This document shows positions 17,260-62,775 of a stretch of 64,000 bases of DNA, in pieces. Under the pieces are notes generated by a model. The model made no database searches. It saw nothing but the letters and a program-made list of their open reading frames with translations, and had not been told where the DNA came from. The stretch comes from Sialis fuliginosa (Eukaryota; Arthropoda; Insecta; Megaloptera; Sialidae), in the NCBI GenBank assembly GCA_961205875.1, contig OY540820.1, positions 6,138,001-6,202,000 of the forward strand, given 5' to 3'. The stretch's first letter is position 1; the number at the start of each line of letters is the position of its first letter. Made by a program: the position numbers and the translations under genes.

Positions 17260-17765
17260 CCAAAGAATACTATACAATACAACTAATTCATCCAATGTTA
17301 AATATCCTATGGCTTAATCAACTTTGAATATACTGTATATGAAATATGATTTTCTTGACTTAATGTTTTTTTTGTGATGTCTTACATAACGAATAATAGA
17401 TATAATCGATGTCTGTTTGATTTTGAAAATTCACATCACCACGCCAATGGGTATTGATTCTGACGGGCTTTTAACGAGAAACCGAACGAATTGGAAATGG
17501 AGATGTAATTACTAATTTAAATTGTTTATGCATTCTGGGTAAAGCGCAGCAGTCGATGCTAATAATTTTTTTTTTCAGTAATAAAATGATGGAATTTCTG
17601 TAGTTAATCACTTCTAGTGCTGTTAGATGTTTTATTTTTATTATTATTACTGAATTGGCATGTTTCAAACGACAAAACCATTAAACTTTCATTTATATTT
17701 TGTTAAAAATAACAATTAATTTCGTTTAAAAAAGAGAAAGCCTCAAAAAATATATTAAAACTATT

Positions 17766-18563
17766 AGACCGGGAGCCGTCAACCCCCATAACATACGTAA
17801 TCGAGTTTCGGGCTGAATTATATGCTAAATTAAAGCTATAACAATGTATTTTTTAAATCTTTTGGTCGGCTAGCTCATATCTTGGCAGAATATGCAGTCT
17901 GACCAAAAAAGAGAGGTGATTTTAAGAGTACATTTACGTCATCGAGTTTCGGGCTGAATTATATGCCAAATGAAAGCTATAACAATGTACTTTTCAAATC
18001 TTTCGGTCCAACCAAAATTATCTTTAAAAAAGGTCAATAGTTCGCGAGGTGACTCTCTCCCGATTTTGTTGCAATTTCGTATACTAATAGTCCAATCAAT
18101 TCTAAGGGACACGTATTTTTTTACATGAGTGGTAACGACCATTTAAAGGGTGAAAACCTCCCTCAAAATTTTACGAATTTTTCGTTTTTCCTCTATAACG
18201 CAAAAAAATAAAAAAGTGTTACATACGTAAAAACATTGTTTTTTTATGAGCATTTCAATGGTATAGTAAAAAAAATCGTAAAATTTTGAGGAAGATTTTC
18301 ACCCCTTAATTGGTCGTTATCACACATATAAAAATATACATGTCCCTTAGAATTGATTGAACTATTAGTATACGAAATTGCAACAAAATCGGCAAGGGTC
18401 ACCTTGCGAGTTATTGCACTTTTTTAAAGATAAATTTAGTCGGACTGACAGAACTGCTAAGATATGAGCTGGCCGACCGAAAGATTTAAAAAGTACATTG
18501 TTATAGCTTTAATTTGACATATAATTCTGCCCGAAACTGTGTTTTGGGGGTTGACGGCTCCCG
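17766..18563. mobile_element. Long foldback element, about 800 bp
   Basis: Outer ends CGGGAGCCGTCAACCCCC and the inverted GGGGGTTGACGGCTCCCG. Both arms carry TCGGGCTGAATTATATG-type and AAGCTATAACAATGTA segments, and the left arm repeats them directly (17810, 17943). Central CACCCTTT-like and mirrored segments keep the two halves complementary. No coding frame; superfamily unassigned. Confidence 0.75.
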
Positions 18564-18639
18564 ATCTATATAGTTTATTAACTTTTTTAACGTTTATTAA
18601 AATTTAATCAATTGTGTCGATTATTATTCCAAATTATTT

Positions 18640-22109: not shown

Positions 22110-22932
22110 ACCTCCCCCCCCCCCTCTCTCAACCCTAAACTCTTAAATGTATTAGCATAAAAAATATAAAGCTAATTTTCATAGGATTTATACATATAGC
22201 TGACCTTCAATATTTATATTATATTATATTTTTGCCCCTTGTCACAGATGAAGGGTAGTAATTGATATTTTTCAATCCGGTGCGAAAAATTTTACATAAG
22301 TGTAGGAACCGAGATAAAGAGTTGGAATTTGTCTCATACGATTCGAGGGGAAAAACAAGCAAGTGTTCAATTATAGTAAATAAAAAAAAATTTAACCAAC
22401 AACAAAATATATCTGTATGGTATCAACTATTAAGTATTCAAAACACTAATAAATAATATGATTCTTGGCTTCTGAGTGTAAGCCGCGTCGGTTTGGTCGT
22501 GTTATCGGCCAACGTTTCGTCACACATTGCAGTGGACATCTTCAGTACACTTTTAGAAGGGCCCTGAAGATATCCATTGCAATGTGTGACGAAACGTTGG
22601 CCGATAACACGACAAAACCGATGCGGCTTACACCCAGAAGCCAAGATCTATATCAAGATCACCGCGGAAGCCTCAAGACTAATAAATAATGGTTTTATTT
22701 ATTCACAAAAATATTCCAAATTCTAATTTTGTATTATATTATAAAACAAAATAATCAATTAAAATTAAAATGATTAGTTAAGTTACATAAATAGAACAAT
22801 ATTTTATAGAAATCAATGGGAAATTAAAACCAACCTCAGTTATTCTGAAACACCTGATACTTAAAATAAACATTACAAAAACATAATTTGTTCGTATGTG
22901 ACCGCGAGCCGCGGGTTGGCCAGCCCTGATTT
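22110..22932 (-). mobile_element. hAT-like copy split by a younger retroposon
   Basis: Matches 52314-52910 in reverse: AACTCTTAAATGTA at left, CAAGCAAGTGTTCAAT, TTCACAAAAATATTCC and, at the tip, TTGGCCAGCCCTG, the complement of CAGGGCTGG. The 220-bp palindromic insertion at 22458-22677 interrupts it. No transposase frame. Confidence 0.65.
22458..22677. mobile_element. Palindromic retroposon with 13-bp target duplication and hammerhead-like arms
   Basis: A 220-bp head-to-head palindrome: left arm antisense (22458-22544), short spacer, right arm sense from CCTGAAGATATCC (about 22563) to GAAGCCTCAAG. ACTAATAAATAAT flanks it exactly at 22445-22457 and 22678-22690. The split hAT copy and its uninterrupted relative at 52550 confirm the empty site. 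A 13-bp duplication indicates target-primed reverse transcription. The sense arm reads CTGAAGA, a GTC/GAC-based hairpin, GAAAC, then GTTGGCC. No protein; probably a SINE-sized derivative of a Penelope-like or other ribozyme-bearing retroelement. Confidence 0.7.
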
Positions 22933-23659
22933 ATATAATAGTTATTGGTAGCTATGCATACGCGATCAAAAGTGCAGTAGGAAATAGTCCCCACACTTTA
23001 TTCTTATTTGATATACTTAGAAATATTTATCATCAAGACGAAAACTCAAAAAAAATATATAAAGATATTTTCCACACATAAGGCCAGTATTTTTTCGTGT
23101 TATATTTTCAGTACAAAACATTTCTAGTATTGCAGTCGTAGGCATCTCTTGATTTCATCTCATTTCGTTCCCCCGTCATTTACTTTTTTCCATTTTTTCC
23201 AAAAGAAATATAATCTTTGTGAAACTATCACCTTCATACCAGCGTCTCATCAGAGCAAGGCGCTATGTAGCTTCATGAAGCTCATTTTATTCGAATATGT
23301 AGGATACTGGAGAGGCGTTACGAACGTGAAAGATATACAAACTTTGATTCTATTCATTTGAGCTAACTAAAGCTTAAAGCATCACACGAAATTTAATTGG
23401 GGCTCTAATAAATGTTAACAAGAAAAGACAATTTTAATTTATTAAATTTTTTATCCAAAACTTGCAAATTATGGTTATTTTAATAAAGCCCTATCTTAAA
23501 TCAAAATAAATAATGATTCCAAACGGGCACTGAAAAATTGTTTTTAACATTTCTAAATAGTTATTGAATATAGCCTATGAAATATTGTTTTATGAAGCAT
23601 AAATATTTATTTGAGGATTTGATCGACATAAAACGGTGAAACTAAAATGTGAATCTTAA

Positions 23660-23800
23660 CTTTGGAGTATAAGTCAAGGTTCTTAAAATCAATAATTCAA
23701 GATGTCCACTGTAATGTGCAGCATAACATTGGCCGAGAAAACGACCAGACTTATACCCAAAAGCCAAGATTCATATTATGATCATCGCGGAAGCTTCATT
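23660..23800 (+). mobile_element. Palindromic retroposon family, decayed copy
   Basis: Sense arm AAGATGTCCACTG, ATTGGCCGA, ACCCAAAAGCCAAGATTC, ATCATCGCGGAAGC, with a short antisense remnant (TATAAGTC) to its left. No duplication recognised. Confidence 0.5.
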
Positions 23801-23897: not shown

Positions 23898-24008
23898 AGT
23901 GTGGGGGTACTGCAGATTGGGTCGTATATAGGCAAATCGGGCCGACTTTTCACAGAATAATCAGCCCAATTTGTTTATAAACGACCCAATCTGCAGTACC
24001 CCCACACT
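23898..24008. repeat. 111-bp hairpin with perfect 28-bp arms
   Basis: AGTGTGGGGGTACTGCAG...GGGTCGT (23898-23925) is exactly complementary to 23981-24008. A further direct CTGCAGATTGGGT copy lies at 24029. No target duplication is obvious. Either a small MITE or a recent local inversion-duplication. Confidence 0.8.
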
Positions 24009-26245: not shown

Positions 26246-26394
26246 GTCTTGAGGTTTCCGCAGTGATCTTGATATGGATCTTGGCTTCTGGGTGTAAGTC
26301 GCGTCGATTTAGTCGTGTTATCGGCCAACGTTTTGTCACACATTGCAGTGGACATCTTCAGCTTACTCCCAGAAGCCAAGATCCATAACAAGAT
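26246..26394. mobile_element. Palindromic retroposon family copy
   Basis: Full antisense arm starting GTCTTGAGGTTTCCGC and ending GACATCTTCAG, fused to a partial sense arm CCCAGAAGCCAAGATCC. No clean target duplication. Confidence 0.65.
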
Positions 26395-26885
26395 AAATTC
26401 AAATTTAATTTTTCATACTTTCTCGTGACTTGAAAATTCAGCATTTTTTAATTCTGATATCTAAACGAACATGCTTTATTTATGAGGTGGCGTATTTTTT
26501 TAAGAATTTGGGAAGGCTCATGAAAAAATTATATTTTCAATAATAATAAAATTAATAATATTGAAGAGCTTAAATTGACTTTTTAGATATGGTTGAATTT
26601 GTTTTCACGTTAGACATAAAATATAGGTTGTCATTATTACAAAATTCGATGTCTTGATTATCTATCTTCATTAAAAATTAAAATTAATTTATTATTTAAA
26701 TATATATAAAATAAAATACACAATAAAACTAACATTAAATAAGATATACCTATTACAATAATACTAATAGACTTTAATTAAAAACACATACAGTGATTCC
26801 TAATTAAGACACGTCTTTTTTATTATAACTGGTTTAATAAAAAAACAATTAATATTAAATAAAAACAGCAACCTACAAAAACTAA

Positions 26886-30420: not shown

Positions 30421-30557
30421 TTTTTGTATAGAACATGATGCGAAAAGTTGAAATTTTTAAACCGCAGATCTATATCTCAAACCGTTCTTGAGATATGGCC
30501 TCTCAATGCTTCAACTAAAAAAAAAATTAAATAAATCTTAAACATGTCATTTTTTAG

Positions 30558-30730
30558 GATCTTGGCTTCTGGGTGTAAGCCGCGTCAGTTTGGTCGTGTT
30601 ATCGGCCAACGTTTCGTCACACATTCTAAAAGTGTACTTTTAGAAGAGTCCTGAAGACGTCCAACTGACGCAGCTTGCATCCAGAAGCCAAGATTCATAT
30701 CAAGATCACCGAGGAAGCCTCAAGACTTGT
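30558..30730. mobile_element. Palindromic retroposon with 14-bp target duplication
   Basis: Second well-bounded copy of the 22458 family. ATGTCATTTTTTAG occurs exactly at 30544-30557 and 30731-30744. Antisense arm GATCTTGGCTTCTGGG to CACACATT, a spacer with AAAAGTGTACTTTT, then sense CCTGAAGACGTCC to GCCTCAAGACTTGT. Both copies end with the same CCTCAAGACT-type 3' sequence, which defines the element's true tail. Confidence 0.75.
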
Positions 30731-30744
30731 ATGTCATTTTTTAG

Positions 30745-42963: not shown

Positions 42964-42973
42964 TATAAATGTT

Positions 42974-43080
42974 TTTGTTTCTGCACATAAGTTGTGTTGG
43001 TTTGGTCGTTGGTCGATTGAACGATCAAACAGACGCGGTTAATACCTAGATTCTAAGAACCATAGCAAGATCATCATAAA
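42974..43080. mobile_element. Palindromic retroposon family, short decayed copy
   Basis: Antisense TTGTGTTGGTTTGGTCG facing sense GATCAAACAGACGCGGTT, then GATTCTAAGAACCATAGC and AAGATCATC. No duplication recognised. Confidence 0.5.
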
Positions 43081-43094
43081 TGAATCTATGCATC

Positions 43095-43720
43095 TTGGCA
43101 GGTGCGTATACAACCTCACTTCTCAGAGGGAGACATACAGTAAAAAATTATAAATTTAACATTCAAATAGCATCATATTTGAAATAAACGTATAATAAAT
43201 CTCAAAATATTTTTTATTGTTTAGTTTTTGTAAAAAAAAAATCCAGAATAGTATACAGAAAATTCGCTGATTAATAAACTATAAATCACAATTTATCTAG
43301 GGCTGCTATTTTCGAGATATTAGTTAACAAAAATTTTCTTGACTGCAAATTCTTTAATTGTTTATTTTACAAATTCGAACGTTGCAAACGTTAGTAGAGA
43401 GAGATGCACAATATGGCAACTAGAAATGAAGTCAAATCAATTTCCTATAAACTCATATAAAATAATTACCTACTAATTAGGTATATTAAAAATAGTCTGT
43501 CAATCTTCATTTGTACGTGTCAAGGAGCTAATTATCAAAATATAATTTTTTTATTCAAATGATTTTGTAGTTGAAAATTTATTAATACATAGTGATTTGA
43601 ACTCATCTGACTACTTTAAATAACTTTCGGATTTCTTCATAATATCTAGTGTATTTTTTAAATTATTTGGGGGGGGGGGGAGGGGGTATGACCCCTTGAC
43701 ACTCCCTTGTATACGCGCCT
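43095..43720 (+). repeat. Dispersed repeat shared with 63062-63360
   Basis: TTGTACGTGTCAAGGAGC through ACATAGTGATTTGAACTC to TAATATCTAGTGTATTTTT is nearly identical between the two places. Here the right part has a G run; there it reads GAGAGGGTCATGACCCC. The copy here is longer on its left. Class unknown. Confidence 0.7.
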
Positions 43721-43721
43721 A

Positions 43722-43850
43722 GATCTTGATTTCTATATAGGTATATGTTGCGTCGGTTTGGTTGATCTATCGGCCAACGACCAAACTGCCAAGGTTTATA
43801 CCCAAAAGCTAAAATCCATATTAAAATCATCGCAGAAGTCTAAAATCTTG
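43722..43850. mobile_element. Palindromic retroposon family, decayed copy
   Basis: Antisense GATCTTGATTTC to ATCGGCCAACG abutting sense ACCAAACTGCC to AAAATCATCGCAGAAG. It lies at the edge of the dispersed repeat at 43095-43720. Confidence 0.5.
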
Positions 43851-44006
43851 TATTAATGCCTCTATGGATCTTGGCTTATACTAAGATCACCACGGAAATA
43901 TAGAAATGTCTATTTTTTTTCTCTTGATTGCAAAAATTTTTTTTATCCGATTGTCGGATTATAATTTTATTGAGATTTTTGGAAGCAGAATCAAAAATTA
44001 TACCTA

Positions 44007-44229
44007 CACTGAAAGACATATCGTTCATTAATATTATGAAACGCATTCAACAACCATAAATTCATAGTACCTAATAATGATGAAATACTTTATATTAAAG
44101 TAAAAATTCATTAAAAGTAAAAAAGTAATGAATTTTTACTTTAATATAAAGTATTTCTTCTTTGTTGTTTGTTTGTTTCTCTCTGTTGAATGCGTTTCAT
44201 AATATTAATGAACGGTATTTCTTTCAGTG
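44007..44229. mobile_element. Foldback MITE, 223 bp
   Basis: Ends CACTGAAAGACATATCGTTC and the inverted GAACGGTATTTCTTTCAGTG. Arms continue through TTAATATTATGAAACGCATT and an inner perfect segment ACTTTATATTAAAGTAAAAA, so almost the whole element folds back around a short loop at 44115-44130. No exact target duplication seen. Confidence 0.8.
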
Positions 44230-52313: not shown

Positions 52314-52910
52314 CAGGGCTGGTTAACCCATGCTCTTTCGTGGGGCTCGCGGCCACATATGAACAAATTATGTTTTTATAATGTTTATTTTAATTATCAG
52401 GTGTTTAACAATAACTGAGGTTGGTTTTAATTCCTGTTGTTTTCTTTAAAATATTGTTCTATTTATGTGACTTAACTACTCATTTTAATTGATAATTTTG
52501 TTTTATAATATAATACAAAATTAGAATTTGAAGTACTTTTGTGAATAAATAAAACCATTATTTATTAGTATTTTAAATACTTGAAACTATATACAGATAT
52601 ATGTATTTTGTTGTTGGTTAAATATTTTTTAAATTTACTATGATTGAACACTTGCTTGTTTTTTTCAATGAGACAAATTACAACCCTTAATCTATGACGG
52701 GGCAAAATATTGAAATTCTTTCGATATTTATTAATTATACAAAATCGTAAATATCTCGGTTTCTATGCGAGGTAGTTGGTAATTTTTTCTCTAAAACTCC
52801 TGCACTTATGTAAGTTTTTTCCTACCTACACCGGATCGAATACAAAATTAGCTTTACATTTTTTATGGTAGTACATTTAAGAGTTTAGGGATGGAGGGTT
52901 ACATAAGCTA
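52314..52910 (+). mobile_element. hAT-like copy, relative of 22110-22932
   Basis: Begins CAGGGCTGG, then GGGGCTCGCGGCCACATATG, TATCAGGTGTTTAACA and AACACTTGCTTGTTTTT, ending near TTAAGAGTTTAGGGATGG. It preserves the site (52555-52570) that is interrupted by the palindromic retroposon in the other copy. Confidence 0.65.
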
Positions 52911-61919: not shown

Positions 61920-62307
61920 ATGGGTCGTTTCAAAATTTGTTGCAGATAAACCTAACCTAACTTGTCTCAAAAGATTTTTGTTAGTTACATTCAAACTTAG
62001 ATAATATTTTGGAATCAATAAACAAAGCACCGTATTAAACATTTTTTATAAAAATAAATAAATCCCACTTAAAATTACTTTTTTAAAGTAACATAGTGGT
62101 CAACAAAGGTAACAAAGTTGTCTTCTATATAAAGAAAAATGGAAAATTTTAAGTGGGATTTATTTCTTTTCATAAAAGATGTTTAATAATACGGTGCTTT
62201 GTTTATTGATTCCAAAATATTATCTAAGTTTGAATGTAACTAACAATAATCAATGTTTTTTCTTCTGGGACAATAGTTTATCTGCAACAAATATTGAAAT
62301 GACCCAT
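61920..62307. mobile_element. Palindromic element abutting the Lim1 exon, 388 bp
   Basis: Ends ATGGGTCGTTTCAAAATTTG and the inverted CAAATATTGAAATGACCCAT. Arms of ~150 bp remain largely complementary through GAATCAATAAACAAAGCACC and ATCCCACTTAAAAT. It finishes 29 bp before the acceptor of the LIM exon and contains ACTAAC at 62239, a strong branch-point match. No clear target duplication; superfamily unassigned. Confidence 0.8.
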
Positions 62308-62336
62308 TTGTTATCTATCTGTATTTGTGTTTGTAG

Positions 62337-62532
62337 GTCGGTGCGAACCCGCGGCCGGGATGCTGATCGCGTGTGCCGGTTGCGACAAGCCGATCCTGGA
62401 CAAGTTCCTGCTCAACGTTCTGGAGCGTACGTGGCACGCGGATTGCGTCAGGTGCTACGACTGCCACGCGCCTCTCACCGATAAGTGCTTCTCGCGCGAG
62501 GCGAAGCTCTTCTGTAGGAACGACTTCTTCAG
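62337..62532 (+). other. Lim1: Lim1 exon containing the LIM1 domain (5' UTR tail plus coding)
   Basis: Full exon between a TG-rich pyrimidine tract with ttgtag and a GTTAGC donor. The first 23 bases (62337-62359) are GC-rich and precede the ATG; they contain no other ATG and no stop in the coding frame. Both flanks are repeats: a 388-bp palindromic element ends 29 bp before the exon and a dispersed repeat starts about 18 bp after it. Confidence 0.9.
62360..62532 (+). CDS. Lim1: Lim1 (Lhx1/5-type LIM-homeodomain factor), first coding exon, LIM domain 1
   Basis: This exon encodes the N-terminus of Lim1, a nuclear LIM-homeodomain transcription factor used in head, neural and appendage patterning in insects (family knowledge). 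It runs from acceptor ttgtag (ends 62336) to donor AG|GTTAGC (intron from 62533). The chosen start is the ATG at 62360, because orthologues begin a few residues before the first zinc ligand. The 58-codon translation begins [16 protein letters not shown] and ends CRNDFFR; the last codon is split by a phase-2 intron. All eight ligands of a LIM double zinc finger are present: C5, C8, H26, C29, then C32, C35, C52, D55. The signatures [10 protein letters not shown] and [11 protein letters not shown] separate Lim1/Lhx1/5 from Lhx3, Apterous and Islet types. LIM domain 2, the homeodomain and the C-terminus must lie beyond position 64000. Codon use is GC-rich, unlike the surrounding AT-rich intron. 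Confidence 0.95.
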
Positions 62533-62550
62533 GTTAGCGATCATTCTTTA

Positions 62551-62775
62551 TATACACTCACGGAAAAAATTAAAGGACCACTTTTATTTTTCGAAAAAAT
62601 TGTTCATTTTCGAATTAATGCCGATAGGTCAAATATGATCCTTTTTTTACTTATAGGATATGAAAATTGGAGGAAATTTTATCATCTTTTCGAATTTAGA
62701 GGTATTTTTGTGTTATTAAACTTATTTTTGTGACCAAATCGCGGTTTAATAAAAAATAAATAAAATGATTTTTTT
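62551..62775 (+). repeat. Dispersed repeat just after the Lim1 exon
   Basis: Colinear with 14246-14470 (TAGGTCAAATATGATCC, TTTTTTACTTATAGG). Begins about 18 bp after the exon donor. Confidence 0.7.

What the first reader, a model, noticed from the sequence alone, without database searches (positions are those of the whole stretch)
22445..22690. Short palindromic retroposon with a 13-bp target duplication and hammerhead-like arms
Seen: a 220-bp head-to-head palindrome flanked by exact ACTAATAAATAAT copies, sitting in a hAT-like copy whose relative at 52314 preserves the uninterrupted site. Known: 13-bp duplications come from target-primed reverse transcription, not cut-and-paste MITEs; Penelope-like elements and retrozymes carry hammerhead ribozymes and often insert as inverted or tandem units. 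The sense arm has CTGAAGA, a bulged GTC/GAC hairpin and GAAAC, then GTTGGCC where a hammerhead would have N4-GUC. Inference: a tiny, possibly undescribed, ribozyme-derived retroposon family whose normal product is a palindrome.
Basis: partly seen in the sequence, partly recalled or inferred. Interest (0 to 1): 0.82.

Follow-up and report, generated by a model that had tools for sequence, protein, structure and literature searches.

The report
Inverted Penelope retroelement end fragments
The palindrome is one of about six broken copies of the end of a Penelope-type jumping gene in this animal DNA, each made of two copies joined back to back, which is a known habit of these elements, although copies made of nothing but the two ends give a neat genomic footprint of how they probably insert.

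Summary
A 220-bp head-to-head palindrome (22458-22677) lies between exact ACTAATAAATAAT copies, and a paralogous repeat near 52560 keeps the single uninterrupted site.

It is not unique. The window holds about six related copies, all head-to-head inverted. The two best preserved have duplications of 13 and 14 bp. In every copy one arm stops about 80-90 nt after a shared ATG, while the other runs on to about +106 to +114, carrying an extra "tail" (shorter in the decayed copy E, about +93).

This anatomy matches published Penelope-like elements (PLEs): inverted pseudo-LTRs, a roughly 31-bp tail on only one of them, a minimal type I hammerhead overlapping the ORF start, and reverse transcription starting inside the ORF (111-118 nt in the Anolis PLE).

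The hammerhead is weak. Rfam finds none at E up to 10, but the segment folds as a minimal, helix-III-less hammerhead, as only 0.4% of shuffles do, and such minimal forms are typical of PLEs.

Best reading: solo, inverted pseudo-LTR insertions of a PLE, made when both cut target strands primed copies of one transcript. "Undescribed family whose normal product is a palindrome" is mostly a known PLE habit. No parent PLE could be searched for: no host genome is held.

The parts
22445..22457 (.). left target-site duplication ACTAATAAATAAT
   Evidence: single copy at the empty site of the paralogous repeat
22458..22545 (-). copy A, short (tail-less) arm, antisense: unit positions 19 to about 107, outer end about 82 nt after the ATG
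22545..22677 (+). copy A, long arm with tail, sense: unit positions 1-133/136 (the last three letters ACT are shared with the TSD)
22558..22603 (+). minimal type I hammerhead-like segment AGGGCC-CTGAAGA-stem II-GAAA-CG-TT|GGCC; predicted cut after 22598; in this arm stem II is weakened by two substitutions
   Evidence: core match at 22564; fold; no Rfam match
22653..22677 (+). one-sided tail ATCAAGATCACCGCGGAAGCCTCAAG(ACT), between the two inferred reverse-transcription start sites
   Evidence: comparison with PMC11167929 and PMC3846280
22678..22690 (.). right target-site duplication ACTAATAAATAAT
23650..23800 (+). copy D: decayed head-to-head copy, sense arm with tail 23699-23798, short antisense arm about 23650-23677, no TSD found
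26246..26396 (-). copy C: sense arm with tail on minus strand (26361-26246), short 34-nt antisense arm (26362-26395), no TSD found
30544..30744 (+). copy B with 14-bp TSD ATGTCATTTTTTAG (30544-30557 and 30731-30744); antisense arm from 30558, both arms meeting near GTGTAC, sense arm with tail to 30730
42965..43082 (+). copy E: decayed head-to-head copy, possible 7-bp TSD ATAAATG
43720..43850 (+). copy F: decayed head-to-head copy with tail; inner junction between the same unit positions as E
52344..52693 (-). paralogous repeat carrying the uninterrupted (empty) target site

Best explanation
The feature is a solo, head-to-head inverted pair of pseudo-LTR fragments of an endonuclease-bearing Penelope-like element (Penelope/Poseidon type). 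Proposed working: a PLE protein-RNA complex cuts both strands of an AT-rich site with a stagger of 13-14 nt. Each free 3' end primes reverse transcription of a PLE transcript at an internal start site inside the first about 110 nt of the ORF, on one side at the inner site (about +80 to +90) and on the other at the outer site (about +106 to +114, giving the tail). Both cDNAs stop within about 136 nt, their ends are joined head to head with little or no homology, and the stagger is filled in to leave the TSD. Shown here: the palindrome, TSDs, empty site, six copies, the clustered two-level arm ends, the open 37-codon frame in the consensus and the hammerhead-like fold. Inferred: the PLE parent, two-sided priming, ribozyme activity.
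For: 1) All copies are head-to-head with variable inner junctions. 2) Short-arm ends lie at +79 to +90 and long-arm ends at +106 to +114 (E, decayed, +93) from the ATG; the short-end span has p = 0.009 with four copies and 0.002 with five under a uniform null. 3) The Anolis PLE cuts and extends both strands, starts reverse transcription 111-118 nt into the ORF, has two start sites separated by the tail, prefers AT-rich targets, and has hammerhead C3 and G8 before the start codon with the cut 26 nt after it; here C3-G8 (CTGAAG) precede the ATG and the predicted cut is 29 nt after the A. 4) A. vaga Penelope: inverted pLTRs, 31-bp tail on one of them, TSDs of 8-10 bp, palindrome at the pLTR 5' end, head-to-head arrangement; here the unit begins within the palindrome CTTCTAAAAGTGTAC/ACTTTTAGAAG. 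5) The consensus segment folds as a minimal hammerhead without helix III (80 of 20,000 shuffles do so), the form reported for PLEs. 6) TSD and empty site.
Against: No PLE reverse transcriptase or endonuclease ORF was found or could be searched for in the host genome. Rfam hammerhead models do not match. Copies C and D have no detectable TSD. A 37-codon open frame is not significant by itself. None of the arms reaches upstream of unit position 1, whereas random 5' truncation of a long PLE RNA should sometimes do so. E and F share one inner junction, so they may not be independent insertions.
Confidence: 0.72

Rival explanations
1. Same PLE origin, but the palindrome is made by one cDNA folding back on itself at the 5'-end palindrome (self-priming), as proposed for A. 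vaga Penelope, and not by two independent priming events.
For: The unit begins in a palindrome (consensus CTTCTAAAAGTGTACACTTTTAGAAG), and copy B joins its arms there. Both arms of copy B share the variant CTGACG, as expected if one arm was copied from the other, though two cDNAs of one source would share it too. Self-priming is the published proposal.
Against: A fold-back copy should carry the tail on both ends, but only one arm ever does, and the tail-less ends cluster. At the inner junctions of A and C the cDNA end shows no matching stretch of more than 1-2 nt that could anneal (own inspection).
Confidence: 0.25
2. A dedicated short non-autonomous family (retrozyme- or SINE-like, template about 136 nt) mobilised in trans by a PLE, not fragments of full PLE transcripts. 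(This overlaps with the best explanation on mechanism; it differs on the source RNA.)
For: No arm extends upstream of unit position 1; several arms end at position 1 or 19. Metazoan retrozymes are short, carry type I hammerheads and may depend on PLEs.
Against: Metazoan retrozymes are tandem head-to-tail repeats with canonical hammerheads; here all are head-to-head with a minimal hammerhead, and there is an ORF start with a tail as in PLE pseudo-LTRs. Only six copies were seen.
Confidence: 0.2
3. A palindromic MITE (cut-and-paste DNA transposon relic) with long terminal inverted repeats.
For: Near-perfect inverted arms; the window is rich in other inverted-repeat elements.
Against: The ends are not symmetric (one has a 25-30-nt tail), inner junctions differ between copies, and TSDs are 13 and 14 bp.
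Confidence: 0.04
4. A 5'-inverted fragment of a LINE produced by twin priming.
For: TSD of 13-14 bp and internal inversion are typical of LINE inserts (own knowledge).
Against: In twin priming the inverted and direct parts are adjacent parts of one RNA; here both arms cover the same sequence. There is no poly(A) or simple-repeat 3' end.
Confidence: 0.04

Closest known systems
Penelope retrotransposons of Adineta vaga, inverted pseudo-LTR inserts and solo pLTRs (PMC3846280)
   Same: Head-to-head inverted pLTRs; about 31-bp tail on one of the two; TSDs of around 8-10 bp; palindrome at the 5' end of the pLTR; ORF start inside the pLTR
   Different: There, most inverted pLTRs flank coding sequence; here the two pLTR fragments are all that is left. 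TSDs here are 13-14 bp. No sequence comparison was possible.
PAc/Poseidon PLE of Anolis carolinensis (PMC11167929)
   Same: Hammerhead core just before the ATG, cut site shortly after it, internal reverse-transcription start 111-118 nt into the ORF, two start sites separated by a tail, both strands cut and extended, AT-rich targets
   Different: Shown biochemically there; only inferred from anatomy here. Sequence relation not tested.
Metazoan non-LTR retrozymes (PMC7229834)
   Same: Short, non-coding, type I hammerhead-like, TSD longer than 4 bp
   Different: Retrozymes are head-to-tail tandem repeats with canonical hammerheads; this is head-to-head with a minimal core
Minimal type I hammerheads of PLEs and Terminons (reviewed in PMC7761336)
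   Same: CUGANGA, stem II, GAAA, no helix III, stem I closes the motif
   Different: An extra U between the CUGAAGA box and stem II; Rfam does not recognise it; activity unknown

Membership tests
Penelope-like element (pseudo-LTR insert) | reverse transcriptase with GIY-YIG endonuclease encoded by the parent element | not testable with these tools
Penelope-like element (pseudo-LTR insert) | direct and/or inverted pseudo-LTR arrangement | tested here: met
   all six places are head-to-head inverted
Penelope-like element (pseudo-LTR insert) | optional 30-40-bp tail on one pseudo-LTR copy | tested here: met
   one arm only extends further, by about 20-35 nt, in A, B, C, D and F; compare
Penelope-like element (pseudo-LTR insert) | target-site duplication of variable length at AT-rich targets | tested here: met
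   13 bp (A, with empty site) and 14 bp (B); possible 7 bp (E); none found in C and D
Penelope-like element (pseudo-LTR insert) | ORF starts inside the pseudo-LTR, overlapping the hammerhead | tested here: inconclusive
   the consensus has ATG directly after CTGAAG and 37 open codons, but a short open frame is weak evidence and the downstream ORF is unknown
Hammerhead ribozyme type I (Rfam) | match to an Rfam hammerhead covariance model | tested here: not met
   no hammerhead at gathering threshold or at E up to 10
Minimal PLE-type hammerhead | invariant core, NUH cleavage site, stems I and II, helix III absent | tested here: met
   core CTGAAGA/GAAA and GTT|GGCC; MFE gives stems I and II; 80 of 20,000 shuffles reach this. 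The core alone is not rare: four other CTGANGA...GAAA sites in the window
Minimal PLE-type hammerhead | self-cleavage of the RNA | not testable with these tools
   needs in vitro transcription
Metazoan retrozyme | head-to-tail tandem repeats with canonical type I hammerheads | tested here: not met
   only head-to-head pairs are seen; helix III is absent
MITE / TIR transposon | symmetric terminal inverted repeats and constant TSD length | tested here: not met
   one-sided tail; TSDs 13 and 14 bp; variable inner junctions

The most novel reading that the evidence does not exclude
A short (about 136-nt template) non-autonomous element that lives off a PLE and inserts regularly as a two-sided palindrome, one arm primed at each of the two PLE start sites, so that each copy is a direct genomic record of two-sided target-primed reverse transcription.
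Probability: 0.2. Interest if true: 0.55.

Novelty: new member of a known kind. Interest (0 to 1): 0.33.

Why it matters
How PLEs insert is still open: self-priming on an antisense template was proposed from genome anatomy, while biochemistry showed cutting and extension of both target strands. Small copies made only of the two arms, with clean TSDs, one-sided tails and an empty site, are good material for deciding between these. Otherwise this is ordinary repeat DNA.

Tried and rejected
Rfam on the whole window and on two copies: no hammerhead; the hits were microRNA or snoRNA models attracted by a long hairpin. Viral-contig scan with the hammerhead-like motif: four matches, in phage-like coding sequence unrelated outside the motif, judged chance. 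Genome-contig scan with a 20-mer: one planctomycete match, about what chance gives, not pursued. Two further viral scans and a phage search: nothing. Literature search for the sequence itself: nothing. The whole unit folded as RNA shows no unusual stability (z -0.32). MITE and LINE twin-priming readings were rejected on anatomy. Three papers on PLE hammerheads and PLE structure (Lunse 2017, Cervera 2014, Craig 2021) are not held.

Full report
The observation. The window (64 kb, 30% GC) has at 22458-22677 an imperfect palindrome with arms of 97 nt at 89% complementarity, between exact copies of ACTAATAAATAAT at 22445-22457 and 22678-22690. Joining the flanks with one copy of the 13-mer aligns straight through to a paralogous repeat on the minus strand near 52344-52693, so the empty site is real and the 13-mer is a target-site duplication.

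It is a family. A blastn of the window against itself and an nhmmer profile find five more places: 23699-23798 (copy D), 26246-26394 (C), 30557-30726 (B), 43007-43075 (E) and 43720-43843 (F). All contain an antisense piece followed by a sense piece of the same unit, head to head. Copy B has an exact 14-bp duplication ATGTCATTTTTTAG at 30544 and 30731; E has a possible 7-bp one; none was found for C and D. E and F join at the same unit positions and have a short similar flank, so they may descend from one insertion (own inspection).

The unit. The consensus is 136 nt. It starts inside a palindrome (GTACACTTTTAGAAG; in copy B the arms meet as CTTCTAAAAGTGTAC-TTTTAGAAG apart from one changed letter at the left end), then GGCC, CTGAAG, ATG, and stays open for 37 codons to CTCAAGACT. 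The marked copy itself has lost the ATG in its sense arm (ATA) but keeps it in the antisense arm. In each copy the arm without the tail ends 79-90 nt after the A of the ATG, and the arm with the tail ends at 106-114 (93 in decayed copy E). The clustering of the tail-less ends has p = 0.009 (four copies) to 0.002 (five) under a uniform null; the end positions were read by eye from the alignments and are uncertain by a few nucleotides.

What this matches. In the Anolis PLE the ORF starts inside a hammerhead, with core residues C3 and G8 before the start codon and the cut 26 nt after it; both target strands are cut and extended; reverse transcription starts inside the ORF at 111-118 nt; two start sites bound the 'tail' (PMC11167929). 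In Adineta vaga, Penelope inserts have inverted pseudo-LTRs with a 31-bp tail on one of them, TSDs of 8-10 bp, and palindromes at the pseudo-LTR 5' end and at the head-to-head junction (PMC3846280). A curation guide lists inverted pLTRs and short 3' extensions as PLE peculiarities (PMC8969392). The copies here show each of these features except the coding region.

The hammerhead. Rfam finds none. The letters CTGAAGA and GAAA recur by chance (four other sites with that spacing in the window). But the consensus segment AGGGCC-CUGAAGA-UGUCCAC-UGCAAU-GUGUGAC-GAAA-CG-UU|GGCC folds on its own with stem I GGCC:GGCC and stem II, leaving both core strands essentially single-stranded; only 80 of 20,000 shuffles with the core held fixed do so. 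Copy A's sense arm keeps this fold with a weaker stem II, and copy B's upstream variant (GUC) still pairs through a G-U. Helix III is missing, as reviewed for PLE hammerheads (PMC7761336); the letters ACGU between the core and the cut are self-complementary, which would allow pairing in a dimer (inference). An extra U after CUGAAGA is atypical. I take it as a probable, decayed PLE-type hammerhead; activity is unknown.

Mechanism. Two cDNAs primed from the two 3' ends of a staggered double-strand cut give exactly this product: antisense arm at left, sense arm at right, RNA 5' ends in the middle, the stagger duplicated outside. The two start sites explain why one arm has the tail and the other does not. 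Fold-back of a single cDNA, proposed for A. vaga, is the main rival: copy B's arms share a variant and meet in a palindrome, but the one-sided tail is hard to explain that way. Both routes give the same family assignment.

Limits. No host genome is held, so the parent PLE, copy number and TSD distribution are untested. The public collections that could be searched hold bacteria, archaea, phages and viruses, and gave only chance matches. That the window is animal DNA is supported by a LIM-domain exon (Pfam E 3e-16).

Noticed in passing
window 62303-62635 (+): Exon with a LIM domain (Pfam PF00412, E 3e-16), resembling a LIM-homeobox gene; it shows the window is animal DNA.
   Followed up: partly
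window 17738-18595: Nested long inverted repeats (arms up to 123 nt, 91%), probably a foldback or TIR transposon.
   Followed up: no
window 61973-62251: Inverted repeat with 65-nt arms at 98% complementarity and 149 nt between, a young MITE-like element just upstream of the LIM exon.
   Followed up: no
window 44007-44229: Inverted repeat with 46-nt arms starting CACTGAAAGACATA, 96% complementary, MITE-like.
   Followed up: no
window 23898-24008: Near-perfect palindrome, 54-nt arms with 3 nt between, AGTGTGGGGGTACTGCAGATTGGG..., close to copy D but of unrelated sequence.
   Followed up: no
window 43863-43900: Small further fragment next to copy F: GGATCTTGGCTT joined to ATACTAAGATCACCACGGAA, which looks like a very short head-to-head remnant of the same unit.
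   Followed up: partly
copies A (22545), C (26361) and D (23699): Arms end repeatedly at unit position 19 (the start of CTGAAGA), and C and D both break near position 82; possibly preferred stops of reverse transcription. Unexplained.
   Followed up: no
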